NCBI RefSeq assembly: GCF_001458735.1
Contig: NZ_CZQA01000001.1
Coordinates: 496,001 to 560,000, forward strand
Direction: 5' to 3'
From: Candidatus Nitrospira nitrosa
Lineage (GTDB): Bacteria > Nitrospirota > Nitrospiria > Nitrospirales > Nitrospiraceae
DNA length: 64,000 bases
A program made the position numbers and the translations under genes. Position 1 is the stretch's first letter; each line of letters begins with the position of its first letter. Below, piece by piece: positions 44,152 to 58,034 of this stretch. The notes beneath the pieces were generated by a model. The model had not been told where the DNA came from, made no database searches, and saw nothing but the letters and a program-made list of their open reading frames with translations.

Positions 44152-45378
44152 ATGGATCAATTTGGACAGGCTCGACAATTAGCATTGGCTGTGTTTCTGA
44201 TGGGAGTCGTCAATGCCGGCTGTGCCACAGCCAGCCTCGCAGACGGCGACAAACCCCAGGAGCATCTCTCAAACTCCGTCCCCTTCGAAACGCAACTCGA
44301 TACCACCTCAACAATGGCCCAAGCCCAAACTGACGAGCCCCCACCCACCCAACCAGCAACCGAAGAGGTCATCCCAGCACAGCCACAGAGCGATCTCCCG
44401 CCAGCCGTTCAGCCACAAGAGCCTGAAGCACCACCTGCTCAGGCCACAGATACGGCCCCGGCGGTTCAGCCACCGGTGGACAGTCCGCCGATAGACAGCC
44501 AGCCGACCGCTCAACCAGCAATTGCAGAACCGGCGCCCGTTCGCGTTGACGTCAACCCATCCATCGAGATCACAGGCCGAGTCTGGCGAGCCAAACCGGG
44601 AATCGTCTTTTTGAAAACGCCGATCGGGCTCATGTCGCTCAGTTCAAAGACCACGCTCAAAACGCTCCCCGCTTCCCAAGAAGTGTCCTTCCTGGTCCAC
44701 GACGAGTATATCGTCATTGATATTGTACGGCGGACTGATGGGACCTTCGTTCACCGCTACCTCACCGGACCGTTTAGGCGAGACAGCGGAGACAATACAA
44801 AGTTACTCCTGTGGACGCCGAATAGTGGGCTGAAAGCGTTCCACATGGGAACCTACGAGTCTGCGCTCACGGCCCCCAAAAACAGCGATTCTGTGACGGT
44901 GGAAGTGGACGGAACCGGTAACGTCATCGGTGTGCATGACCTCCAGTTCGATCTTCAGATCGGGCAGATCGCCCCCCCGGGAAGTAAGGCGCAGCTGTTA
45001 CTGACCGGAACGATCGCTAAAATGAAGTCGAATTTTATCTTCTTCAAGACGCCCATCGGCATCGTCAACGTCAACACCAAGATCGGCATCAAGAACGCCA
45101 AGATCGGGCAGACCATGACCTTGCATATGCATAACGACTCCGTCGTGGCGGATCTTGCAGCCGCCAACGATACGGCTCTGATCCGCCGTTTCGTGACAGG
45201 ACCATTGGACTTCACGGCTCCGGATCATGCCCAGGTTCGACTCTGGACGCCTGAAGGAGAACAGACCTACTCCGTCGGAGTCAGCAAATCCGACCTGAAC
45301 GGGGCGCGAGAAGGAATCCCCATTACCGTGGAGCTCAACGGCCAAGGCGAGGTCGTTGAACTGTATCGCGTGAAGTAG
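44152..45378 (+). CDS. Lipoprotein with proline-rich linker and duplicated domain
   Basis: The 408-aa precursor has a lipobox-like end to its signal sequence (ALAVFLMGVVNAGCAT). Residues about 55-130 are a Pro/Gln/Ala-rich linker (PPPTQPATEEVIPAQPQSDL) likely to span periplasm or peptidoglycan. The rest is two copies of one domain: one starts GRVWRAKPGIVFLKTPIGLM near 141, the other GTIAKMKSNFIFFKTPIGIV near 286. Each ends in a GPFRR or GPLDF and LWTP segment. No known family. It precedes the sigma/anti-sigma genes by 75 bp on the same strand. Confidence 0.65.
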   Translation: MDQFGQARQLALAVFLMGVVNAGCATASLADGDKPQEHLSNSVPFETQLDTTSTMAQAQTDEPPPTQPATEEVIPAQPQSDLPPAVQPQEPEAPPAQATDTAPAVQPPVDSPPIDSQPTAQPAIAEPAPVRVDVNPSIEITGRVWRAKPGIVFLKTPIGLMSLSSKTTLKTLPASQEVSFLVHDEYIVIDIVRRTDGTFVHRYLTGPFRRDSGDNTKLLLWTPNSGLKAFHMGTYESALTAPKNSDSVTVEVDGTGNVIGVHDLQFDLQIGQIAPPGSKAQLLLTGTIAKMKSNFIFFKTPIGIVNVNTKIGIKNAKIGQTMTLHMHNDSVVADLAAANDTALIRRFVTGPLDFTAPDHAQVRLWTPEGEQTYSVGVSKSDLNGAREGIPITVELNGQGEVVELYRVK

Positions 45379-46431: not shown

Positions 46432-48138
46432 ATGACCAAGACCTATTTTCGTGGATTACTCCTCCTCTCCGGACTCTTGACGGCTGTTGAATTGAACGTA
46501 CCGGAGACGGCAAGCGCCGCGTCGAAAGCGCCCCGCACCACGGCAAAACACAAGGCCGTCCAGACCACCGCCATCGACACCGCCTTGCGCTATGCCACAG
46601 CACTTGCCAACGGCGACAAGATCGGGGCTGGGCAACTCGACTTTGCCTGCCAGTACAATTTGGTCACCGCTCCGGCAACAACAGCAAAATCCGCCGTTGC
46701 AAAGGAGCCTTCCTACGACGAATGCTGGAGAGTGATGACGGCAGGACATGGTCCTTTCCTGAATCGGTCGGATATCGGAATGGATGTCCTCTGGCCCAGT
46801 TCAGGTCCTCTCGTGTTTTATGGGGATACACTAGCCGGCGCACAAGCCTCGGCCTTTGTCATGGATGTGCTTGGAACCTCCCCTCCAGGCACCGGCCTTG
46901 ATCTGTCCGTCACCGGAAGCCGCGCTATTCCAAGCGGATCCTTCCGGCTGAAACCGAATGGGACGGTGTTTGGAGTACCCGCGACACTGGTCGACCTAAC
47001 CGTTCACTACCACGACCCGCTCACATCTCCGATTGCGTACGGGCCGGGCACCGTTCACTGGACCAGCACCATCAAGCGCGAACGCCGCGCCATCAAATCC
47101 ATTACCACGCAATGGGTCGTGCTCAGCGGACTCCGGTCACATGGGTTTCCACGCGACACAGCCGTGGTGCATCTTCTCGTAGACACAAAGGCTGAGCCTC
47201 CAAGCACGGTCCCCGAACGCATCCCGTTCATCACCGAGCGAAGCCGCGCCCTTGCCGACTCCATCATCTGGTGGAGCCCGAACGATCAACCGGGCACATT
47301 GACTGCGGCGGCGGCCCGCGCTGCCTCGTTCCCCGAGCTGCGTGACCGCGTCGCCCTCCTCAATCGCATTCTCCTCATTGACCCACAACAGACGGAAGCC
47401 CTCACCGTCTTAGCCAAGAATCTCTATGCGGCTCTGCTGCAGGACGCGACCCGAAGCCACAAGCTCCTCGTCAAGGATCCCGCACTCGCCCAAATGCTCA
47501 ACGAGTTTTATTGGACGATCGCCGCCGCGTCGGACCGCCTTGATCTCTCGTTGGGGATGGAAGTCGGTGGGTTTTCGCAACCGACTTCTGCAGATCTGCT
47601 GTACCGGCTATTGCCGGCACTGCAAACTCTCGCACGCACCCATCCTGAGCAGTTGGAGAACCGATTTCGGCTTGGGATGGCCTATCGTTGGAACAACGAT
47701 CAGGTGCCGATGATTGAAACATTCGAAGCCTTGGCCAATGAGATTCCGTCCGACCGACAGACTCCCAAGGCTGAAGCCCTGCTACAACTGGCCTGGTCCC
47801 GCATCAACAAAGTGGCCTGGAATCGGATCTTGCATGACCAGGACAGTATCCGCGCCTATGACGCTGCGAAGGCGTCGCTGGAACTCGCGGAACGGCCGCT
47901 CGACAAGTTTCTCGCCGAATACGCCATGGCCTACAGCATGATCTTCCTGCCGAACTATGGAGATAAAGAACAGATGCTCCACCATCTGACCGAGGCCAAA
48001 CGCTGGTTCGATGAGATCCCCGGAAAGGACGACGAAGTCTGGCAGTATTTTCTCCACAGAGAATTGCTGAAGGCCGTACTCGACGCCGATCCGATGTTTC
48101 AATCCATCCTGGCAGCCACTGAAAAGCCCTCGCATTAA
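46432..48138 (+). CDS. Exported 568-aa protein with helical repeat C-terminus
   Basis: An N-terminal signal peptide (LLLLSGLLTAVELNVPETAS) is followed by a region of about 250 residues with CQYN and ECW cysteines (SYDECWRVMTAGHGPFLNRS) and a beta-like part. The C-terminal 270 residues are helical and TPR-like (ENRFRLGMAYRWNNDQVPMI, LLQLAWSRINKVAW, AEYAMAYSMIFLPNYG). It follows the anti-sigma gene by 27 bp and is probably part of that operon. Two decayed copies of its 3' end lie at 56371-56460 and 57813-58034. Function unknown; likely periplasmic. Confidence 0.6.
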   Translation: MTKTYFRGLLLLSGLLTAVELNVPETASAASKAPRTTAKHKAVQTTAIDTALRYATALANGDKIGAGQLDFACQYNLVTAPATTAKSAVAKEPSYDECWRVMTAGHGPFLNRSDIGMDVLWPSSGPLVFYGDTLAGAQASAFVMDVLGTSPPGTGLDLSVTGSRAIPSGSFRLKPNGTVFGVPATLVDLTVHYHDPLTSPIAYGPGTVHWTSTIKRERRAIKSITTQWVVLSGLRSHGFPRDTAVVHLLVDTKAEPPSTVPERIPFITERSRALADSIIWWSPNDQPGTLTAAAARAASFPELRDRVALLNRILLIDPQQTEALTVLAKNLYAALLQDATRSHKLLVKDPALAQMLNEFYWTIAAASDRLDLSLGMEVGGFSQPTSADLLYRLLPALQTLARTHPEQLENRFRLGMAYRWNNDQVPMIETFEALANEIPSDRQTPKAEALLQLAWSRINKVAWNRILHDQDSIRAYDAAKASLELAERPLDKFLAEYAMAYSMIFLPNYGDKEQMLHHLTEAKRWFDEIPGKDDEVWQYFLHRELLKAVLDADPMFQSILAATEKPSH

Positions 48139-48453: not shown

Positions 48454-49704
48454 ATGAACGCCAAGGATTGGGTGGGGCTCATTGAAGAAGTGTATCGGCT
48501 TGAAGAGGACGACGACAGCTGGCTGAACCGTCTACTGGAACACGCCGCTCCTCTATCGAAGCGAGGATTCTGGCCCACCATCGGCACCTATCGCTATACC
48601 CCAAGCAACCTAGAGCTTGAACGGTCGGCCGCACTGGGGCCGACGCACGCACGCGACATTCTTGCAGCCAGTATGCAGGTGCACACTCCGGCGGTCAGCC
48701 ACTTTTTCCGCAGCGGGCCGGCCGTGACATCACTCAGCGAAGCGCTGTACACACGTGAGCCAGATCTTGCGGCGGTTGTTCAGCAGATTACGAACGGTGT
48801 GGTCCTCGATAAGATCGCAATCAAGGGGCTGACAGGCCAAGGCAGCGCGCTCATCCTGTGTTGGTTGTTTTCAGAACGAATCGTACCGACCGTGCAGGAG
48901 CGCCACCGTTGGCAATGTGTGGCGAGCCATCTGGGTGCCGGACTCCGGCTGCGCGAGTTCGCACAGACGTTGGATCTCGACTCTCCGTCCGTGGAGGCCA
49001 TTTTCGATGGATCCGGAAAACTCCACGAAGCCCGTAAGGGCGCGGAACGTCCGTCCGCACGTGTATCATTGCGTAAGTCTGTCCGCCGCCTTGAACAGCT
49101 CAGAACCCATCACGGCCGGCGTGACCCGGATCAGGCGTTAGCGGCCTGGGAGGGACTCGTCCATGGTCGCTGGTCGCTCGTTGATCACTTTGATTCCGAT
49201 GGACGCCGCTTTGTCCTTGCAATCAAGAATGATCCCCGGTTTCCCGATCCGCGTGGCCTTACCCCGCGCGAACGCCAAGTTGCCGAATTCATCGGTCAAG
49301 GGCACAGCTGCAAGGAGATCAGTTATATGCTGGGGATCTCAGCGTCCGCCGTGACGAACTGCACGACGCGCGCAGTTCGCAAACTGGGTTTATCATCGCT
49401 CACAGAGCTCGCGGCATTTTTTTCACCGAACGGACCACGAGCCACGCTGGCGGAATATGGAGTGCATGAGAATACATTGCTGATCGGCACCTATCCGTTC
49501 CTTCCTGCCGGTCAGGTTGCGAACCTTACTGACGCCGAACGAGAAGTACTTGCCGCGTTGTTGATGGGCTCCACGAACCGTCACATTGCACAGCGCCGTA
49601 ACTGCAGCGAACATACCGTGGCGAATCAGGTGCAGTCCATTTTTCGCAAAGTCGGTGTGCATTCGCGGAGCGAGCTGCCTGTACGATTGCAACGCGACGC
49701 GTGA
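48454..49704 (+). CDS. Transcriptional regulator with two LuxR-type HTH domains
   Basis: The 416-aa protein has an N-terminal region of about 260 residues with no recognised domain. Two LuxR-type helix-turn-helix domains follow. The first, at about 268-325, reads LTPRERQVAEFIGQGHSCKE and ISYMLGISASAVTNCTTRAV. The second, at about 357-414, reads LTDAEREVLAALLMGSTNRH and IAQRRNCSEHTVANQVQSIF. Two such domains in one chain are rare, since LuxR proteins normally bind DNA as dimers. It faces the DsbA/peptidase operon from 550 bp upstream and is the obvious candidate regulator, by position only. Confidence 0.8.
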   Translation: MNAKDWVGLIEEVYRLEEDDDSWLNRLLEHAAPLSKRGFWPTIGTYRYTPSNLELERSAALGPTHARDILAASMQVHTPAVSHFFRSGPAVTSLSEALYTREPDLAAVVQQITNGVVLDKIAIKGLTGQGSALILCWLFSERIVPTVQERHRWQCVASHLGAGLRLREFAQTLDLDSPSVEAIFDGSGKLHEARKGAERPSARVSLRKSVRRLEQLRTHHGRRDPDQALAAWEGLVHGRWSLVDHFDSDGRRFVLAIKNDPRFPDPRGLTPRERQVAEFIGQGHSCKEISYMLGISASAVTNCTTRAVRKLGLSSLTELAAFFSPNGPRATLAEYGVHENTLLIGTYPFLPAGQVANLTDAEREVLAALLMGSTNRHIAQRRNCSEHTVANQVQSIFRKVGVHSRSELPVRLQRDA

Positions 49705-50255: not shown

Positions 50256-51089
50256 ATGACACCAATCCGGAGAACATTCTCATTCTTGTCTTTCAGTCTA
50301 GTCATATCACTCGGAAGTCTCGTCGGTAATACCGAAGAGATGTGGGCTCAGCCCTCTGATCTGCAGTCAGCGTCTACCACTATCAAAGCTCAGGTTGAAG
50401 AGACGTTACGGGAACATCCTGACCTGATCCTTCGTGCATTGGAACATGATCCTGTAGTTCTCGCTGATCTCGTGGAACGTGGAACCGAGATTCGAAAAAC
50501 GAAGGTTGAAGAATCCCGATGGCGGGCCGAGCTGGCAAATCCCAAAGTTCCTCACGTGGCGACTGATCGGCCGATGCGAGGGACCCGCCAAGCGCCCGTG
50601 ACGATCGTTGAATATAGCGATTTCGAATGCCCGTACTGCAGAGCGGTGTCGCCCGCCATACAGGACGTGCTTTCTACATATGCGGACCAGGTTCGTTTCG
50701 TCTACAAGCACAACCCGTTGAGCTTTCACGCCACGGCTGAACCAGCCGCACGATATTTTGAGGCGATCTCGCTACAGAACGAAGAGGAGGCTTGGCGATT
50801 CCATGACCTCATGTTCCAGCAGCAACGGAACTTGTCTCGCGGCGTCGAAGCCGTGCAGGAAATTGCCGCAACACTGGATGTCGACCATGCGCAGCTCGAA
50901 CGCGATTTACAGAGCGACGCAGTGGCGCAACGTATCGCAGCTGATCGAGCGGAAGCTGAACGGTTCGGCTTCGACGGCACACCCGCGTTTCTCATTAACG
51001 GCATCTCATTGATCGGCAACCATCCGAAACGAGATTTCGACCGTATTATCGGCAACCTGCTGCAGAAACCACAGGCAATGGCACACTGA
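50256..51089 (+). CDS. DsbA-family thiol oxidoreductase
   Basis: The 277-aa precursor has a signal peptide (TFSFLSFSLVISLGSLVG) and a helical N-terminal extension (QVEETLREHPDLILRALEHD). Its thioredoxin-fold domain has the active site ECPYCRAVSP (C125, C128) and the cis-proline box FDGTPAFLINGISL. The long helical prefix and CPYC resemble the Com1/ScsC-like subgroup of DsbA proteins. ATG 50256 is preceded by AGGAGG. It is 57 bp upstream of the first cysteine-rich peptidase and is well placed to form or correct its disulfides. Confidence 0.88.
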   Translation: MTPIRRTFSFLSFSLVISLGSLVGNTEEMWAQPSDLQSASTTIKAQVEETLREHPDLILRALEHDPVVLADLVERGTEIRKTKVEESRWRAELANPKVPHVATDRPMRGTRQAPVTIVEYSDFECPYCRAVSPAIQDVLSTYADQVRFVYKHNPLSFHATAEPAARYFEAISLQNEEEAWRFHDLMFQQQRNLSRGVEAVQEIAATLDVDHAQLERDLQSDAVAQRIAADRAEAERFGFDGTPAFLINGISLIGNHPKRDFDRIIGNLLQKPQAMAH

Positions 51090-51146
51090 GGAGTGAAGGT
51101 GACGCGGATTGGCTATAAGGCAAGCTGCGATGGAAAGGAACTCGCA

Positions 51147-52625
51147 ATGAAGATCATATCCATTGTTCTCTTGCTCGCATTAACTTCAGGCTTCGCATCG
51201 GCAGCGGACAATTTTGACGAGTTTCGCCTCAACCTACATTTCGTGAACGGGACGAAAGACACAAGCAATGAAGACTTGGAAGTTCGTCGTATCCGATCGT
51301 GGATTGAAGAAGCGGAGAGGCAATATGCGACGAAACCGCGGCTAACAATCACCTATACCATTGAGCGGAAGACCACCGTGGCCGGCCGAAACCTCTCCAG
51401 TCTTGCCTTTAACGGAATGGCAGAGTTCAACAAATTCATGGATGAACACTTTGACAATCAAGCCAGGACGGAAACGGAGGGACATCTCACCTTGCTTGTG
51501 GGTAACACATTGTGCTGGAACGACCTACTCGGCAAACAGAAGTGTTGGGGTGGCTGGGCAAACTTTCCACATGACGTCAACCCCTTCAACCGCAAGAAGG
51601 GGATTTGGCTGAGCGAGGGTAGCGATAAATATCTCTTAACGCATGAACTGGGACACTTCTTCAGCCTCAAACATACTTTCGAGCCCTATATTGGCTTCAA
51701 CAAGCAATGCAACAAGGATTTTGCCAACAAGAATGTCTTCAATCCCGACTTAGGCCATTGCAATTCGTGTAATGGAAGGATCGCCGTACGTGATCGTAGC
51801 AACGGTAATCAGTACTACGCCTGTGAGGGTGGAGTGTCGAACATCATGGACTATTGCTCAAGTCTGATCTCGGATGAGACGGGAGAGTTTACTGTAACAG
51901 GCACCGAAACCTTGAACACCTGTCAGCAAGAACGTGCGGCCAACCAACGACAACAGTTCATGACTAAAGACGGCAAGGTTGACTATGTAAAACTCGCCGG
52001 CTTACGCGGTGAAGGGCAGTGCGAAGCTGACACCGACTGCGAGGATGGAGAGTTCTGCACCGCAGGGATCCTGAATCTCAGCAGAAATGTCTGCAAGCCT
52101 AAGTTGGACCGCGGGACGCTGTGCACCACCAAGCGGCAATGTGCGTCTGACCGTTGTAGCTGGGGTGTATGTGCCGATCCGGACGAATGCCGAGCCGACG
52201 CCGACTGCGGATCGGGCAATTACTGCGGCGACCCGATTTCTGGTAAACGCACCTGCAAAGACAAGTTGAGCGACGGTTCTGTCTGCACCAAGGATCAACA
52301 ATGCCAGGCAGGCCGATGCAAGACAGGATTCTGTTCTGCATCAGCTTCCGCATCAATGGGCGAATCCTGTCGCTTTGACGACGAATGCCGAGAGGGGAAG
52401 TGCACCGCACCGGTCGGTGGACTCACCAAGGGCACCTGCGTCTGTAAGAAAGACTCAGACTGTGGCTCGGGGAAATGGTGTGATGGCGGAGTTGATGCCA
52501 AAGCGAATGTCTGCAGGGCAAAACTTGATAAAGGAGAGAAATGTGGAGCACTCGGCACCTTCGGCAATGATCATAAATGCAAGTCTGGCGAATGTTCCGG
52601 CGCACCGAAGTACGAATGCAAGTAG
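51147..52625 (+). CDS. Exported M43-like metallopeptidase with Cys-rich repeats
   Basis: The 492-aa precursor starts MKIISIVLLLALTSGFASA (signal peptide; AAAGGAA before ATG 51147). The catalytic domain has LLTHELGHFFSLKHTF (HExxHxxxxxH, H166) and a Met-turn-like SNIMDYCSS near 232, as in pappalysin-type M43 zinc peptidases, though the usual Gly after the second His is Ser. Residues about 290-492 are cysteine-rich repeats of the form CxxDxDCxxGxxC (CEADTDCEDGEFC, CRADADCGSGNYC, CKKDSDCGSGKWC). The protein ends in GNDHKCKSGECSGAPKYECK, a tail shared with the next two proteins. Confidence 0.8.
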   Translation: MKIISIVLLLALTSGFASAADNFDEFRLNLHFVNGTKDTSNEDLEVRRIRSWIEEAERQYATKPRLTITYTIERKTTVAGRNLSSLAFNGMAEFNKFMDEHFDNQARTETEGHLTLLVGNTLCWNDLLGKQKCWGGWANFPHDVNPFNRKKGIWLSEGSDKYLLTHELGHFFSLKHTFEPYIGFNKQCNKDFANKNVFNPDLGHCNSCNGRIAVRDRSNGNQYYACEGGVSNIMDYCSSLISDETGEFTVTGTETLNTCQQERAANQRQQFMTKDGKVDYVKLAGLRGEGQCEADTDCEDGEFCTAGILNLSRNVCKPKLDRGTLCTTKRQCASDRCSWGVCADPDECRADADCGSGNYCGDPISGKRTCKDKLSDGSVCTKDQQCQAGRCKTGFCSASASASMGESCRFDDECREGKCTAPVGGLTKGTCVCKKDSDCGSGKWCDGGVDAKANVCRAKLDKGEKCGALGTFGNDHKCKSGECSGAPKYECK

Positions 52626-52663
52626 TGCTTGCTTGAACGAGGAACACGAATAGGGGGTGGCTC

Positions 52664-54046
52664 ATGAATGTAATCGTACAACAGTCGACTGGTTGGACCA
52701 GGCTGTCACGCGCAGCCGTTGGCATGTGGTGTCTCATTGCGATTCTCGAGCTAGGACTTGCTCTTCGATCTCACGCTGAATCTGAGAGCGCGTCGGCACA
52801 TTCCTTGATGGCCAAGGCATCCAAGGCGCCGGAGGAAAAACAAAAGGGTCAAACTGTGCCAGCAGAGTCCAATGGGGCTGCGGTGTGCGAGCCCTCTGCT
52901 CAAAAGGCGTATGCAACCTGCATGGACGGGCCGACGCCGGATCAGGACCTCTGCCTGCGTAAGGCGGACGAGACTGAACGGCAATGCCTGACTATGCAGG
53001 GCTTACTCCCGCAGTTAGGGGTAACTGAGGTCAAAGTCTCCGAGGGGTTGTATCGGATACCTTATGTGGATGGGACCAAGGTACACGTCAATCGGAATTT
53101 TCAAGATCACAATCCTCCTGGAAAAATCGACATGGTCGGACGCGGTGGGGGACCCTATAGGATCGTGGCGGCAGCCGATGGTGAGATCATGTACATCGAG
53201 GACAGTCGAGATAAGCAACAACATCCCAAGCGATGGCTTCGAAATGCAAAATGCTTTAACAACTTCGTCTGGATCAAACATGACAATGGGGAATGGACCA
53301 AATATTCGCATATGCAACTGGGCACGACCACGGCCAAAGCTAAGCGGAAGGTTGGCGATCACGTCCAACAGGGCGATTATCTGGGGGACGAAGGACATGT
53401 CGGATGTGCGTGGCCAGCCCACCTCCATTTTGAAGTTGTGCAGCCCTCCATCTCAAATCCTACAGTCGACCCGGCGAGTGGAGAGTTGGAGTTGGAGGGC
53501 GACTACTATCAGTACGTACGAAATCCGCGTTTCCTGGGGCCACAGGGTACTTTTACATTTGCGGATGGGGCTGATTATGTAGTCGGCGGAAAATCCGGCT
53601 GCAAAAAGGACGACGATTGTAACGATGGGCAGTACTGCAATGCCGGGATCGACTTGACCAAAAACGCCTGTCTGCCGCTCAAAAGCGACAACGAGGCTTG
53701 CGAAGCGGTTGGCGGTGGACATCAGTGCAAGAGTGGGAAGTGCCAGTACGGACGATGCTATACCCCACAGTCTGTGGACCCAGGCAACACGTGCTACGTC
53801 AATGACGCCTGCAAAGCAGGACAATGCAGTGACCTTCAAGGTGTTAAAGGAGTGTGTGTCTGTCAGAACGATGCGGACTGCGGTGATACAGACAAATACT
53901 GCGATAGGGGAATGGACTTCAAACTCAATGCCTGCCGAACCAAGCTGAACAAGGGTGAAAAGTGTGGGAAGGCTGGTTCCGTTGGAAATGACCATAAATG
54001 CAAATCAGGGGAATGTTCGGGCTTCCCTAAGTACGAATGTAAATAG
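52664..54046 (+). CDS. Exported M23-like endopeptidase with Cys-rich repeats
   Basis: The 460-aa precursor has a hydrophobic leader (MWCLIAILELGLALRSHA). A short segment with CATC-type cysteines (EPSAQKAYATCMDGPTPDQD) follows, then an M23/LytM-type domain: FQDHNPPGKIDMVG (H149, D156), VAAADGEIMYIEDS, and PAHLHFEVVQP (H253, H255), the usual zinc ligands. M23 enzymes cut peptidoglycan or Gly-rich peptides. Residues about 310-460 carry the cysteine-rich repeats (CKKDDDCNDGQYC, CQNDADCGDTDKYC) and the shared end GNDHKCKSGECSGFPKYECK. The first-to-third ligand spacing is long, so activity needs proof. Confidence 0.8.
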   Translation: MNVIVQQSTGWTRLSRAAVGMWCLIAILELGLALRSHAESESASAHSLMAKASKAPEEKQKGQTVPAESNGAAVCEPSAQKAYATCMDGPTPDQDLCLRKADETERQCLTMQGLLPQLGVTEVKVSEGLYRIPYVDGTKVHVNRNFQDHNPPGKIDMVGRGGGPYRIVAAADGEIMYIEDSRDKQQHPKRWLRNAKCFNNFVWIKHDNGEWTKYSHMQLGTTTAKAKRKVGDHVQQGDYLGDEGHVGCAWPAHLHFEVVQPSISNPTVDPASGELELEGDYYQYVRNPRFLGPQGTFTFADGADYVVGGKSGCKKDDDCNDGQYCNAGIDLTKNACLPLKSDNEACEAVGGGHQCKSGKCQYGRCYTPQSVDPGNTCYVNDACKAGQCSDLQGVKGVCVCQNDADCGDTDKYCDRGMDFKLNACRTKLNKGEKCGKAGSVGNDHKCKSGECSGFPKYECK

Positions 54047-54196
54047 CTCGGGCCAACGCCTAGCCTAAGGGGATGAACATCTGCTGTCCGTCATGTCACG
54101 CTCAGGAAGGTTCGTCTCGCCAGGCTTGAGACGGTTGTGCCTGCAACGATGTACAAGACCCACTGGGAGGAGTCTCGGGGGTCGGGAGGAGATGTG

Positions 54197-56155
54197 ATGA
54201 AATCGATATGGGGATTGATGTCGCTCGGCCTAGTACTGCTCACGACGCCTGCTTATGCCGACTTATGTGACAGCGTGAAGGACAAGACCACAACGAGCGA
54301 AACAAAGAAGGATGTGGATTTCTATGAAGAACTCTTTCCTAGTGCGGTAGAGCGTGGCCATCGGATGTGGAATGAGATTATCCTGCAGTGTAACCGTCAA
54401 CGCGACACGAAGGGGAATGATGTCGCCAAGATCACGGCCAACGCCGGAACCAGTGCCGACAAGCAGATACTCAAGGCGCGCGACGTTGAACCGAAAGTCA
54501 TCCGCGGACACTACAATTTCTTCGGCACGTTCGTGACACAGCTCAAGTATGTCTATGTCTTGAGCAAACAAGATGGCATTTGGACCATGATCATTCCGTA
54601 CCGACCGATTATCAACGATGTGGTCCCTGATCGTGTGGATTTCAACTTTACACATGCCGGCCAATTGTACGATGCCTCACAGCTGGAGTCTCCGGCCGGT
54701 GGAGGAAAGGCGCAGAGTTTCATCCTGAAACCTGGGGCGGTGTCGATCGCAACGACCTTGTGCTCCACCACAACATACTTCCCAGGAGACGCGGGCAAGT
54801 ATGACAAGAAAGAAATCCATCAGCGGGATCCCGAGAACAAGTTCATCAGCTTGGGGAGAATTGACTATCAGTACGGGAAGGACGGCTCTGCTTTCTCAGG
54901 GTGCCGTGTGGACAAGACCCGAGATCTGTATTGGCGTCCTGACCCGGCGGAAAATCAGGCCGCGAAAGTAAAGCCTGAGGATTGGATCCTCGATAATTTT
55001 GTGCGGACCGCCGAAAACTATTGGTCGATCAAGGATCTGTTTCAGCTCAAACTGCTCATGAAGGGGCGAAACGAGTCTCAGTTCCCCAAGTCGACGTTGA
55101 ACCTCCTGGAGGATGACGACCATCTGACAATACGGTTTGCGACAAAATTCTTACCCTATGATTTCAATCAGATGTATAAGTCCAACCTGATTCAGTTCAA
55201 CAATTTCTCCACGATGACCACCGATGGCACCTATTGGCACGAAGTCGGTCATGCATTCGGCTTAGACGACGAATACGGGAAGGTGAAGGACAAGAAAGAC
55301 GGTATCGAATACAAGGACAATGGGTGCGACAACGAGCAGTACGCGAATTGGTCGCCCAAAACATACCAGATGTGTGATGCCGGAGTTTCAGAAAAGCGGA
55401 CGATTTACCACTATCTGGCCGTCTCTCGATATATTACGAAGCAGAAAGAGTGTAACGCCGACAATGATTGTGGCAACGGCGAATATTGCAACGCGGGCGT
55501 CGATCTCAAAAAGAACCAGTGCATGGCAAAAAAGCCCGATAACGAGACGTGTGATATTGCCGGCGGTGATCATCAATGCAAAAGCGGTTATTGCAAGCTC
55601 TCTCGCTGTTATACCCCCAATTCAGTGCCGATGGGCGAAACTTGCTATCTCAATGATGCCTGCAGGGAGGGTAAGTGTAGTAGCCTTGATGGAACAAAGG
55701 GCACCTGCGTCTGTCAGGCTGATACCGATTGTGGGACGGGCAAGTACTGCAATGCCGGGTTGGATGCCACCAAGAATAGTTGCCTGATGCTGAAAAATGA
55801 CAATGAGACCTGTGACATCGCCGGCGGTGATCATCAATGCAAAAGTGGCTATTGCAAGTTGTCTCGGTGCTACACCCCCAATTCGGTGCCGATGGGTGGG
55901 ACCTGCTATCTCAATGATGCCTGCAAGGAGGGTAAGTGTAGTAGCCTTGATGGAACCAAGGGCACCTGTGTGTGCAAAGCAGATGCGGACTGCGGACCTG
56001 GAAAGTGGTGTGATGCAGGAATCGACACAACAGTGAATGCCTGTCGACCGAAGCTCAACAAAGGCGAAAAGTGCGGCAAGCTCGGTTCCTTCGGCAATGA
56101 TCACAAATGCAAATCCGGGGAGTGTTCTGGAGCGCCAAAATACGAGTGCAAATAG
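54197..56155 (+). CDS. Exported HExxH metallopeptidase-like protein with Cys-rich repeats
   Basis: The 652-aa precursor starts at ATG 54197 (GGGAGGAG upstream) with signal peptide MKSIWGLMSLGLVLLTTPAY. The large N-terminal domain is unlike known families until TYWHEVGHAFGLDDEYGK (H348). This HExxHxxGxxD motif has Asp as third ligand, as in snapalysin (M7) and related to M64 peptidases. Residues about 418-652 are cysteine-rich repeats, including a near-perfect 87-residue duplication (NETCDIAGGDHQCKSGYCKL and on). It ends in GNDHKCKSGECSGAPKYECK. Third in line after the DsbA-like gene, with a 150-bp spacer. Confidence 0.78.
   Translation: MKSIWGLMSLGLVLLTTPAYADLCDSVKDKTTTSETKKDVDFYEELFPSAVERGHRMWNEIILQCNRQRDTKGNDVAKITANAGTSADKQILKARDVEPKVIRGHYNFFGTFVTQLKYVYVLSKQDGIWTMIIPYRPIINDVVPDRVDFNFTHAGQLYDASQLESPAGGGKAQSFILKPGAVSIATTLCSTTTYFPGDAGKYDKKEIHQRDPENKFISLGRIDYQYGKDGSAFSGCRVDKTRDLYWRPDPAENQAAKVKPEDWILDNFVRTAENYWSIKDLFQLKLLMKGRNESQFPKSTLNLLEDDDHLTIRFATKFLPYDFNQMYKSNLIQFNNFSTMTTDGTYWHEVGHAFGLDDEYGKVKDKKDGIEYKDNGCDNEQYANWSPKTYQMCDAGVSEKRTIYHYLAVSRYITKQKECNADNDCGNGEYCNAGVDLKKNQCMAKKPDNETCDIAGGDHQCKSGYCKLSRCYTPNSVPMGETCYLNDACREGKCSSLDGTKGTCVCQADTDCGTGKYCNAGLDATKNSCLMLKNDNETCDIAGGDHQCKSGYCKLSRCYTPNSVPMGGTCYLNDACKEGKCSSLDGTKGTCVCKADADCGPGKWCDAGIDTTVNACRPKLNKGEKCGKLGSFGNDHKCKSGECSGAPKYECK
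55541..56062 (+). repeat. Two tandem 261-bp units within the third peptidase gene
   Basis: Units 55541-55801 and 55802-56062 each encode 87 residues beginning NETCDIAGGDHQC. Their first 60 codons are almost identical in DNA, and both contain GCCGGCGGTGATCATCAATG, so the duplication is recent or is being homogenised. Confidence 0.8.
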
Positions 56156-56370: not shown

Positions 56371-56460
56371 TTCCTTCGTAGCCCGTTGCTGAAGGTCGTG
56401 CTCGACGCCGCTCCGATGTTTGAGCCGATCCTAGCGACGGCGGAAAAATCCAAGGAGTAG
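56371..56460 (+). pseudogene. 3'-end remnant of a 568-aa-gene paralogue (copy 1)
   Basis: The frame FLRSPLLKVVLDAAPMFEPI then LATAEKSKE and TAG aligns, stop to stop, with the end of the 46432-48138 protein (FLHRELLKAVLDADPMFQSI, LAATEKPSH). Only about 29 codons remain. Confidence 0.75.
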
Positions 56461-57812: not shown

Positions 57813-58034
57813 ATGGACTCCCGTTCCCTATACCAGAGCATGATCTTTATGCCAAACCATGAAGACAAAGGTCGGATGCTTCACCGCCTCACCGAGGTCA
57901 AACGCTGGTTCGATGAGATACCCGGCAAAGACGACGAAGTCTGGCGCTACTTCCTCCAGCGCGAATTATTGAACTCGATGCCGATTCGATGTTTCAGCCT
58001 TATCCTAGCCTCAGCGGAGAAACCTACAGAGTAG
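57813..58034 (+). pseudogene. 3'-end remnant of a 568-aa-gene paralogue (copy 2)
   Basis: YQSMIFMPNHEDKGRMLHRL and KRWFDEIPGKDDEVWRYFLQ align with the C-terminus of the 46432-48138 protein. After RELL a small deletion shifts the frame; LDADSMFQ is readable in another frame and the original frame returns at ILASAEKPTE, ending at the homologous stop. About 70 codons survive and no signal peptide or start remains. Confidence 0.8.

What the first reader, a model, noticed from the sequence alone, without database searches (positions are those of the whole stretch)
50256..56155. DsbA plus three secreted peptidase-like proteins sharing one cysteine-rich C-terminus
Three adjacent exported proteins have unrelated N-terminal zinc-site domains (M43-like HELGHFFSLKH, M23-like HNPPGKID/HLHFE, HEVGHAFGLDD) but the same C-terminal module of CxxDxDCxxGxxC repeats. 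All end in GNDHKCKSGECSG(A/F)PKYECK. A DsbA-like oxidoreductase gene leads them. A shared tail on different catalytic heads suggests a common targeting or assembly signal, such as surface attachment or a shared carrier, with a dedicated disulfide catalyst. I know no described system of this form.
Basis: partly seen in the sequence, partly recalled or inferred. Interest (0 to 1): 0.88.

Follow-up and report, generated by a model that had tools for sequence, protein, structure and literature searches.

The report
Shared cysteine tail on secreted peptidases
A Nitrospira genome carries a gene cluster in which three different exported zinc peptidases end in the same cysteine-rich tail beside their own disulfide-forming enzyme, and the same tail turns up on further peptidases in other bacteria, so it looks like a portable module that several enzymes share.

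Summary
A DsbA-like gene (50256-51089) leads three zinc-peptidase-like proteins with signal-like N-termini and a shared C-terminal array of Dickkopf_N-like (PF04706) cysteine-rich units: 4-cysteine subdomains, (AB)n-A', ending at a Cys-Lys C-terminus. The tail is not confined to this genome. I found it on 16 proteins: 3 here, 10 on other Nitrospira contigs, and one each on contigs labelled Nitrosospira, Burkholderiaceae and Nitrospina, the last two with a fourth head type, M19 dipeptidase. In Nitrospira the DsbA link is exact: of 79 genus genomes, its orthologue (69% identity or more) occurs in precisely the 5 with the tail, one of them with the cluster in a different context. Outside Nitrospira, 5 of 5 inspected loci show no DsbA nearby. 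No transmembrane or Arg-rich CTERM tag is present, so a classical sorting tag is unlikely. One head type occurs without the tail and another with a related tail, so the tail is a swappable accessory. Best reading: secreted zinc hydrolases on a disulfide-locked stalk or attachment module, oxidised by a co-inherited DsbA. Ligand and exit route are unknown; both structure predictions failed. The domain family is known; the combination was not found in the literature searched.

The parts
50256..51089 (+). DsbA-like thiol oxidoreductase (CPYC motif, TP cis-Pro motif, signal-like N-terminus); co-inherited with the tail in Nitrospira
   Evidence: PF13462 85.0 bits, PF01323 66.9 bits, both over cut-off; GAGGAGG before ATG 50256; orthologue in exactly the 5 tail genomes of 79
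51147..52625 (+). Metzincin/M43-like protein with signal-like N-terminus (HELGHFFSLKH ... NIMDY) and 7-subdomain (28-Cys) tail; alternative start GTG 51093
   Evidence: PF05572 19.8 bits is below its cut-off of 23
52020..52358 (+). Tail units 1-2 of the M43-like protein, Dickkopf-type (D class), 55% identical over 108 residues to the tail of the M19 protein of G739
   Evidence: (PF04706 53.5 bits)
52359..52622 (+). Terminal B-A' module of the M43-like protein
   Evidence: 548359-548622 of contig C1
52664..54046 (+). M23-family peptidase with signal-like N-terminus and 5-subdomain (20-Cys) tail; the relatives in L040, L041, L043 and L045 have one more AB unit
   Evidence: PF01551 43.6 bits
53600..54043 (+). 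Cys tail of the M23 protein (AB-A')
54197..56155 (+). Metzincin-like protein with signal-like N-terminus (HEVGHAFGLDDEY ... QMC) and 8-subdomain (32-Cys) tail; alternative start GTG 54137
   Evidence: tailless homologues in other genera
55451..56152 (+). Cys tail of the HEVGH protein (AB-AB-A')
48454..49704 (+). LuxR-type regulator with two GerE stretches upstream of the cluster; possible regulator (inferred)
   Evidence: PF00196 91.1 bits, 2 stretches; present in 4 of 5 tail genomes and in 3 genomes without the tail; a 45% identical homologue lies next to an M19-plus-Dickkopf-tail gene in G739

Best explanation
The locus is an accessory module for making extracellular zinc hydrolases on a common disulfide-locked tail. 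Each peptidase is exported by Sec (inferred from the signal-like N-termini). In the periplasm its catalytic head and its tail, a string of 4-cysteine subdomains of the Dickkopf/colipase kind (8 subdomains, 32 Cys, in 10 of 16 proteins), are oxidised by the DsbA encoded at the head of the cluster (inferred from exact co-inheritance in Nitrospira). The folded protein is then released or displayed outside. The tail acts as a protease-resistant stalk and attachment module giving different heads the same destination or binding partner; the combined M23/metzincin (elsewhere M19) activities digest peptide or peptidoglycan material there. Shown: shared tail, different heads under it, unit architecture, DsbA co-inheritance in Nitrospira, patchy distribution over several bacterial groups. 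Inferred: disulfide pairing, DsbA-client relation, extracellular location, common partner, catalytic activity.
For: Tail on 4 head types in 16 proteins. Of 7 tail pairs on different heads that I compared, 5 keep 64-65% identity with Cys columns dropped, including Nitrospira or Nitrosospira HEVGH against Burkholderiaceae M19, so more than the Cys scaffold is kept; the two with L047 are at 48-50%. Cys counts 32 (10 of 16), 28 (4), 24 (1), 20 (1), all multiples of 4, with C-x5-C-x5-C-x9/11-C spacing in most of the nine units checked (exceptions are the B unit and two terminal units with another second gap), match the C1-C3/C2-C4 subdomain of Dkk4 CRD1 (PMC6078440, passages). DsbA orthologue in exactly 5 of 79 genus genomes, the same 5 as the tail; 439-620 bits against 101 for the next best. 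In L043 DsbA and two tail peptidases are together in another genomic context. Tailless HEFGHVLGLDDEY relatives end just before the tail position, with no DsbA in the 12 kb held around one of them, L116. IS-type genes flank the Nitrosospira-labelled copy; G096 has the LuxR-aat interval without the cluster.
Against: No DsbA hit in the held flanks of 5 of 5 loci outside Nitrospira (L044, L046, L047, L114, L115; the last two carry the related D-type tail), so DsbA is not an obligate neighbour; and the window's genome has two other, more distant DsbA-family genes. No binding partner, sorting enzyme or secretion gene was seen linked to the tail in all loci. The tail is not always better kept than the head: against L044, heads are 57-67% and tails 63-65%; for M43 orthologues heads 90-93%, tails 86-93%. 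The co-inheritance count is inflated by shared ancestry: 4 of the 5 Nitrospira clusters share one upstream context. Only 3 of the 5 (window, L040, L041) show all three heads; L043 shows two and W63 (L042, L045) two, on separate contigs. AlphaFold models failed (mean pLDDT 34.3 and 37.8), so the tail fold rests on sequence only, and no solved structure matches the tail profile.
Confidence: 0.55

Rival explanations
1. The tail is a C-terminal secretion or sorting signal, read by a dedicated outer-membrane or surface-anchoring machine, in the manner of T9SS CTDs or CTERM tags.
For: At the extreme C-terminus in 16 of 16, ending in Cys-Lys (15) or Cys-Gln (1); the terminal module is strongly conserved in the 12 sequences aligned; different heads share it.
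Against: No hydrophobic helix or Arg-rich end (highest 19-residue hydropathy after residue 40 is 1.55, in the head of L047). No sorting-tag hit among NCBIfam results. Only one tail gene in each of the three non-Nitrospira MAGs with the terminal module, and no common processing gene noticed in the held flanks. Tailless relatives of one head keep a signal-like N-terminus (by eye).
Confidence: 0.15
2. The tail is only a stabilising, protease-resistant spacer of a bacterial Dickkopf-like repeat type, repeatedly duplicated within a locus; the shared sequence reflects tandem duplication and gene conversion rather than a shared partner.
For: DNA-level similarity between tails in the cluster; the last 25 nt of W_M43 match its paralogues (19 of 25) better than its orthologues (14 and 16 of 25); copy number varies (W_M23 lacks one AB unit); related M19 heads (66-67% identical) carry another Dickkopf-type tail in G426 and G739.
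Against: About 64% non-Cys identity between tails on unrelated heads in contigs labelled as different phyla seems high for a passive spacer (judgement); the gene-conversion signal is short and weak.
Confidence: 0.25
3. The cluster is an antibacterial or predatory weapon: M23 and metzincin enzymes aimed at other cells by the tail as a cell-wall or receptor-binding domain, as in secreted bacteriolysins.
For: The M23 profile's best solved-structure matches include ShyA, DipM, lysostaphin and zoocin A; patchy distribution and IS-type neighbours of one copy.
Against: No immunity gene was recognised, but only the neighbours at 44152, 46432 and 48454 were scanned (Pfam) and the defence library was not used. 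M23 similarity to solved structures covers only the core (best E 3.4e-4). M19 and metzincin heads are not typical of bacteriolysins (recalled).
Confidence: 0.12

Closest known systems
Dickkopf_N domain (Pfam PF04706), colipase-like CRD1 of animal Dkk proteins
   Same: P0002 and P0004 score over Pfam's gathering cut-off (53.5 and 27.2 against 25 bits); the four-Cys subdomain spacing agrees with the disulfide map of Dkk4 CRD1 (PMC6078440, passages).
   Different: 8 rather than 10 cysteines per two-subdomain unit, an extra single B subdomain, tandem arrays at the C-terminus of bacterial peptidases; P0003 is below the cut-off (19.3).
TraA of Myxococcus xanthus (PA14 + TIGR04201 Cys-rich repeats + MYXO-CTERM)
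   Same: Exported bacterial protein whose head sits on Cys-rich tandem repeats, suggested there to be a rigid stalk (PMC3325183, passages).
   Different: TIGR04201 cut-off not reached (17.1 and 16.7 against 25 bits); no C-terminal hydrophobic helix; heads are peptidase-like, not PA14.
C-terminal sorting tags (MYXO-CTERM, GlyGly-CTERM, PEP-CTERM) and T9SS CTD
   Same: One C-terminal module shared by otherwise unrelated secreted proteins.
   Different: Cys-rich, 148-236 residues; no transmembrane helix or Arg-rich end. T9SS genes were not searched.
M23 LytM-type endopeptidases (ShyA, DipM, lysostaphin)
   Same: P0003 head: PF01551 43.6 bits with H...D and HLH motifs.
   Different: Wider H-to-D spacing, HNPPGKID (comparison recalled), and the C-terminal Cys tail.
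DsbA / BdbD / ScsC-type thioredoxin-fold oxidoreductases
   Same: PF13462, PF01323, CPYC; PDB matches from 3gyk (E 5.6e-17) to 4gxz, a suppression-of-copper-sensitivity protein (E 8.6e-7).
   Different: Distinct orthologous group linked to the tail peptidases in Nitrospira; N-terminal ScsC_N only 15.2 bits against a cut-off of 25.8.

Membership tests
Pfam Dickkopf_N (PF04706), P0002 and P0004 tails | whole-protein score over gathering cut-off 25 | tested here: met
   53.5 and 27.2 bits
Pfam Dickkopf_N (PF04706), P0003 tail | whole-protein score over gathering cut-off 25 | tested here: not met
   19.3 bits; M23 relatives: L040 28.9, L045 28.7 over, L043 23.9 under. The HEVGH protein L044 is also just under (24.5), and no Dickkopf_N hit was listed for L046 and L047
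Animal Dkk CRD1 | ten cysteines, five disulfides | tested here: not met
   8 Cys per A, A' or D unit; five disulfides in Dkk4 CRD1
Dickkopf/colipase fold | solved or confidently predicted fold | tested here: inconclusive
   two AlphaFold models with mean pLDDT 34.3 and 37.8; no PDB sequence match to the tail profile
TIGR04201 Myxo_Cys_RPT | score over cut-off 25 | tested here: not met
   17.1 (P0002), 16.7 (P0004), none listed for P0003; 16.6 for L044, 15.0 for L105, none for L046 and L047
CTERM sorting tags (MYXO/PEP/GlyGly) | C-terminal transmembrane helix followed by Arg-rich end | tested here: not met
   no such NCBIfam hit
T9SS cargo | T9SS CTD family hit | tested here: not met
   no such hit in Pfam or NCBIfam
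T9SS cargo | T9SS machinery in the genome | not tested
   no search made
Peptidase M23 (P0003) | PF01551 over cut-off and H...D, HxH motifs | tested here: met
   43.6 bits against 28.7; HNPPGKID and HLHFE
Peptidase M43 (P0002) | PF05572 over cut-off | tested here: not met
   19.8 bits against 23; L040 relative 18.7
Metzincin (P0002) | HExxHxxxxxH plus Met-turn | tested here: met
   HELGHFFSLKH and NIMDY in the sequence; motif definition recalled
Peptidase M66 or M6 (P0004) | family score over cut-off | tested here: not met
   PF10462 15.8 against 20.6; TIGR03296 15.5 against 110.8
Peptidase M19 (L046, L047 heads) | PF01244 over cut-off 26 | tested here: met
   57.5 and 38.4 bits
DsbA-like thioredoxin fold (P0001) | PF01323/PF13462 over cut-off with CxxC | tested here: met
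   66.9 and 85.0 bits; CPYC
NCBIfam DsbA equivalogs | score over equivalog cut-off | tested here: not met
   NF047695 21.4 against 290; NF041057 79.6 against 190
Type II secretion substrate | T2SS present in host (GspD TIGR02517 over cut-off) | tested here: inconclusive
   over cut-off in 3 of 8 hosts (G395, G396, G397); in the 5 Nitrospira the best is 287.8-292.7 bits against 351 (controls: hits in 6 of 14, over cut-off in 2)
Type II secretion substrate | secretion lost in a gsp mutant | not testable with these tools
   needs experiment

The most novel reading that the evidence does not exclude
A horizontally mobile 'tail plus dedicated disulfide catalyst' display kit: a portable Cys-stalk that docks chemically different hydrolases onto one common extracellular partner, with its own DsbA in Nitrospira and a double-HTH LuxR regulator beside tail genes in Nitrospira and in one Burkholderiales genome.
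Probability: 0.2. Interest if true: 0.8.

Novelty: new variant of a known kind. Interest (0 to 1): 0.57.

Why it matters
Modular C-terminal tails shared by unrelated exported enzymes often mark an export, anchoring or targeting route. This one has no membrane helix, is built of 4-cysteine Dickkopf-like subdomains, is found under four peptidase types in contigs labelled as three phyla, and in Nitrospira is inherited together with one particular DsbA. That makes a specific, testable case of a client-dedicated disulfide catalyst. It also bears on how nitrifiers may act on surrounding protein or peptidoglycan: 4 of the 5 Nitrospira hosts carry an ammonia monooxygenase gene, although most AMO-bearing genomes of the family (54 of 58) have no tail.

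Tried and rejected
Structure: AlphaFold on A4 (5 rows) and A5 (4 rows) gave mean pLDDT 34.3 and 37.8; no fold search was made because matches would be meaningless. Solved-structure searches with the tail alignment and the M43-like alignment gave no match, and with the HEVGH alignment three hits at E 0.34-0.68.

Wider tail searches: viral contigs, 15 pattern matches and none confirmed; plasmids, none for the L046 tail, for a stretch of the G739 protein, or for the whole window HEVGH protein. The genome-contig scan used only two peptide patterns, so distant tails may be missed.

Literature: PF04706/Dickkopf_N terms gave 0 papers, Dickkopf with bacterial repeat terms 0, Nitrospira with Dickkopf 2, off-topic by their listings, comammox+peptidase+DsbA 0, Nitrospira nitrosa+peptidase+secreted 0. 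Of the other listings I read only two papers, in passages. The library is open-licence papers only, so absence there is weak evidence.

Promoter/terminator scan: 5 and 6 sites against 5.1 and 6.6 expected, so it says nothing on operon structure. Considered and dropped: T9SS CTD and CTERM tags (no motif), a TIGR04201 family member (below cut-off), tail confined to this locus (false). Within-locus gene conversion of tails: only a short, weak signal.

Errors of mine: the tail of L105 was cut by wrong coordinates (113 of 214 residues); one search repeats it correctly. The 55% figure over 108 residues is, the 43.5% over 177. The query was chosen with similarly wrong coordinates and covers only about half of that tail plus part of the head, so its negative result counts for little. 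The non-overlap filter of my script hid the L047 tail frame; one search found it.
Full report
OBSERVATION. The four genes exist as described. The DsbA-like protein carries CPYC and scores over cut-off in PF13462 and PF01323. The three following proteins begin with hydrophobic signal-like N-termini (no signal-peptide predictor was available) and end in a Cys-rich tail. Over the last 86-88 residues the second and third are 62% and 72% identical to the first, with 52 invariant columns, and a blind repeat search recovers the copies at DNA level. Within the 4.42 Mb genome 8 of 9 matches to the terminal module lie in these three genes; the ninth is E 0.42 with a stop codon inside. Gaps between the genes are 57, 38 and 150 nt with the ATG starts; DsbA, the M43-like gene and the HEVGH gene have plausible ribosome sites. 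In L040 the longest frames of the three peptidase genes follow one another almost without gaps. This suits one transcription unit but does not show it (one search finds nothing beyond chance).

HEADS. P0003 is an M23 peptidase by score (43.6 bits; cut-off 28.7). P0002 has a metzincin zinc site and Met-turn (HELGHFFSLKH, NIMDY) but stays below the M43 cut-off (19.8 against 23). P0004 has HEVGHAFGLDDEY with a later QMC and no peptidase family over cut-off (M66 15.8 against 20.6). Relatives of the P0004 head without any tail occur in three genomes of two other genera of the family (G156, G157, G169; frames of 358-370 residues; HEFGHVLGLDDEY; about 24% identity), ending where the tail would begin. 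The tail is therefore an added module.

TAIL. In its regular form the array consists of units of 86-88 residues with 12 Cys (A+B), ending in a unit of 59-68 residues with 8 Cys (A') whose last residue, after the last Cys, is Lys in 15 of 16 and Gln in L047. Cys counts over the 16 proteins are 32 (10), 28 (4, the M43-like ones), 24 (1) and 20 (1), all multiples of four. Spacing C-x5-C-x5-C-x9/11-C in most of the nine units checked resembles the four-Cys subdomain of human Dkk4 CRD1, where C1-C3 and C2-C4 pair and two similar subdomains make a colipase-like domain (PMC6078440, passages read). P0002 and P0004 score over the Dickkopf_N cut-off (53.5, 27.2 against 25); P0003 does not (19.3), nor does L044 (24.5), and L046 and L047 show no Dickkopf_N hit. 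P0002's first two units belong to a more Dickkopf-like subtype shared with M19 proteins of two genomes of the order of the Burkholderiaceae MAG, G426 and G739 (Dickkopf_N 70.1 and 73.2 bits; 39.5% and 43.5% identity over 177 residues). Those two tails hold 32 Cys each in 216 and 214 residues. The disulfide pattern and the stacked-subdomain picture are inferred; both structure predictions failed.

DISTRIBUTION. Tail profile: 5 of 175 family genomes, all in the genus; 2 of 295 in a phylum sample; 3 of 399 in the order of the Burkholderiaceae MAG, two of them the already known Nitrosospira- and Burkholderiaceae-labelled MAGs and the third (G426, E 4.9e-5) the Dickkopf-type tail; 1 of 77 in the phylum of the Nitrospina MAG, that MAG itself. 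A scan of genome contigs (84,980 species by its description) with two peptide patterns gave 8 loci: five contigs of four Nitrospira MAGs and one contig each labelled Nitrosospira, Burkholderiaceae and Nitrospina. The last two carry an M19 dipeptidase head (57.5 and 38.4 bits; cut-off 26). These are MAG contigs, so host labels may be wrong. The Nitrosospira-labelled copy is an HEVGH protein between IS-type transposase/integrase genes. In 5 of 7 pairs compared, tails on different heads are 64-65% identical with Cys columns dropped, also between Nitrospira and the Burkholderiaceae contig; the two pairs with the Nitrospina one are 48-50%. Within HEVGH proteins of Nitrospira the tail is better kept than the head in the more distant pairs (80-83% against 59-67%), but against the Nitrosospira copy it is not consistently so (tails 63-65%, heads 57-67%); for M23, W against the others is head 48-51%, tail 61-63%; for M43 heads 90-93%, tails 86-93%. 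All three heads together were seen in 3 of the 5 Nitrospira clusters (window, L040, L041); L043 has HEVGH and M23, and W63 (L042, L045) M43 and M23 on separate contigs, with no HEVGH head listed for its genome (G089).

DsbA. In 79 genus genomes, hits at 439-620 bits (69-100% identity) occur in exactly the five tail genomes; the next best of all is 101 bits at 33%. More distant DsbA-family genes are general in the genus (76 of 79 genomes have a hit at 1e-10), and the window's genome has two besides this one, so it does not lack other candidates for the task. Taken at face value the 5/5 against 0/74 split has p = 4e-8, but four of the five share the same upstream context, so the independent evidence is smaller. 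The fifth (L043/L101, G085) has DsbA-HEVGH-M23 in another context, without the LuxR, TPR and ECF genes, so DsbA and tail peptidases moved or were kept together. Outside Nitrospira no DsbA hit lies in the held sequence of L044, L046, L047, L114 or L115 (6-19 kb each).

SITE AND REGULATOR. The upstream double-HTH LuxR gene is present in 4 of 5 tail genomes and in three genomes without the tail (G096, G100, G127; 76 searched). In G096 LuxR is followed by the aat gene at about 2.2 kb, with other ORFs between and no cluster, against 10.7 kb in the window: a relative of the site without the cluster. The fetched stretch of G127 also has LuxR and no cluster gene, but aat was not found in it. In G739 a 45% identical, full-length LuxR homologue lies directly beside the M19-plus-Dickkopf-tail gene. 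L115 (G426), L043, L044, L046 and L047 show none. This is one case and may be chance.

MECHANISM. The most likely reading is Sec export, periplasmic oxidation by the linked DsbA, then release or display of zinc hydrolases on a common Cys-stalk that sets their place or partner. Type II secretion would be the natural exit for folded, disulfide-bonded proteins (recalled), but GspD reaches its cut-off in only 3 of 8 hosts and in none of the 5 Nitrospira (287.8-292.7 bits against 351). Sorting-tag models are disfavoured by the lack of any hydrophobic or Arg-rich end. A passive-spacer model remains open.

KNOWN AND NEW. The nearest described bacterial parallel I read is TraA of Myxococcus, whose Cys-rich repeats (TIGR04201) are suggested to be a rigid stalk before a MYXO-CTERM tag (PMC3325183, passages); the proteins scanned here stay below the TIGR04201 cut-off and show no MYXO-CTERM hit. 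The domain kind is thus known. The tail subtype, its four heads and its exact pairing with one DsbA were not found in print in searches of an open-licence library. Verdict: a real, uncommon, modular system; a new variant of a known kind; function unproven.

Noticed in passing
window 47935-48101, 57837-57996, 48064-48113 and 56386-56435: The 3' end of the 568-aa TPR-like gene (46432-48138) recurs as two diverged fragments downstream of the peptidase cluster (79% over 167 nt at 57837-57996, 84% over 50 nt at 56386-56435), suggesting an insertion or duplication history. A similar short stretch lies downstream of LuxR in L098, which shows no cluster.
   Followed up: partly
L046 3191-6103: The Burkholderiaceae-labelled M19-tail gene is followed by a WD40-repeat-like frame with a caspase-like DTCHSG stretch near the contig end (assignment by eye, not searched).
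   Followed up: no
L044 5008-5988 and 10748-11260: DDE_Tnp_IS240 and rve_3 integrase-type genes flank the Nitrosospira-labelled HEVGH-tail gene.
   Followed up: partly
G000:C1:66037-66744 and G000:C11:106121-106828: The window's genome carries two AMO (PF02461) genes, so it looks like a comammox-type Nitrospira; 4 of 5 tail genomes have one, G085 shows none at 88% completeness.
   Followed up: partly
L114 7138-8400: A LuxR regulator with two GerE stretches, 45% identical to window 48454-49704, lies next to an M19-plus-Dickkopf-tail gene in genome G739.
   Followed up: partly
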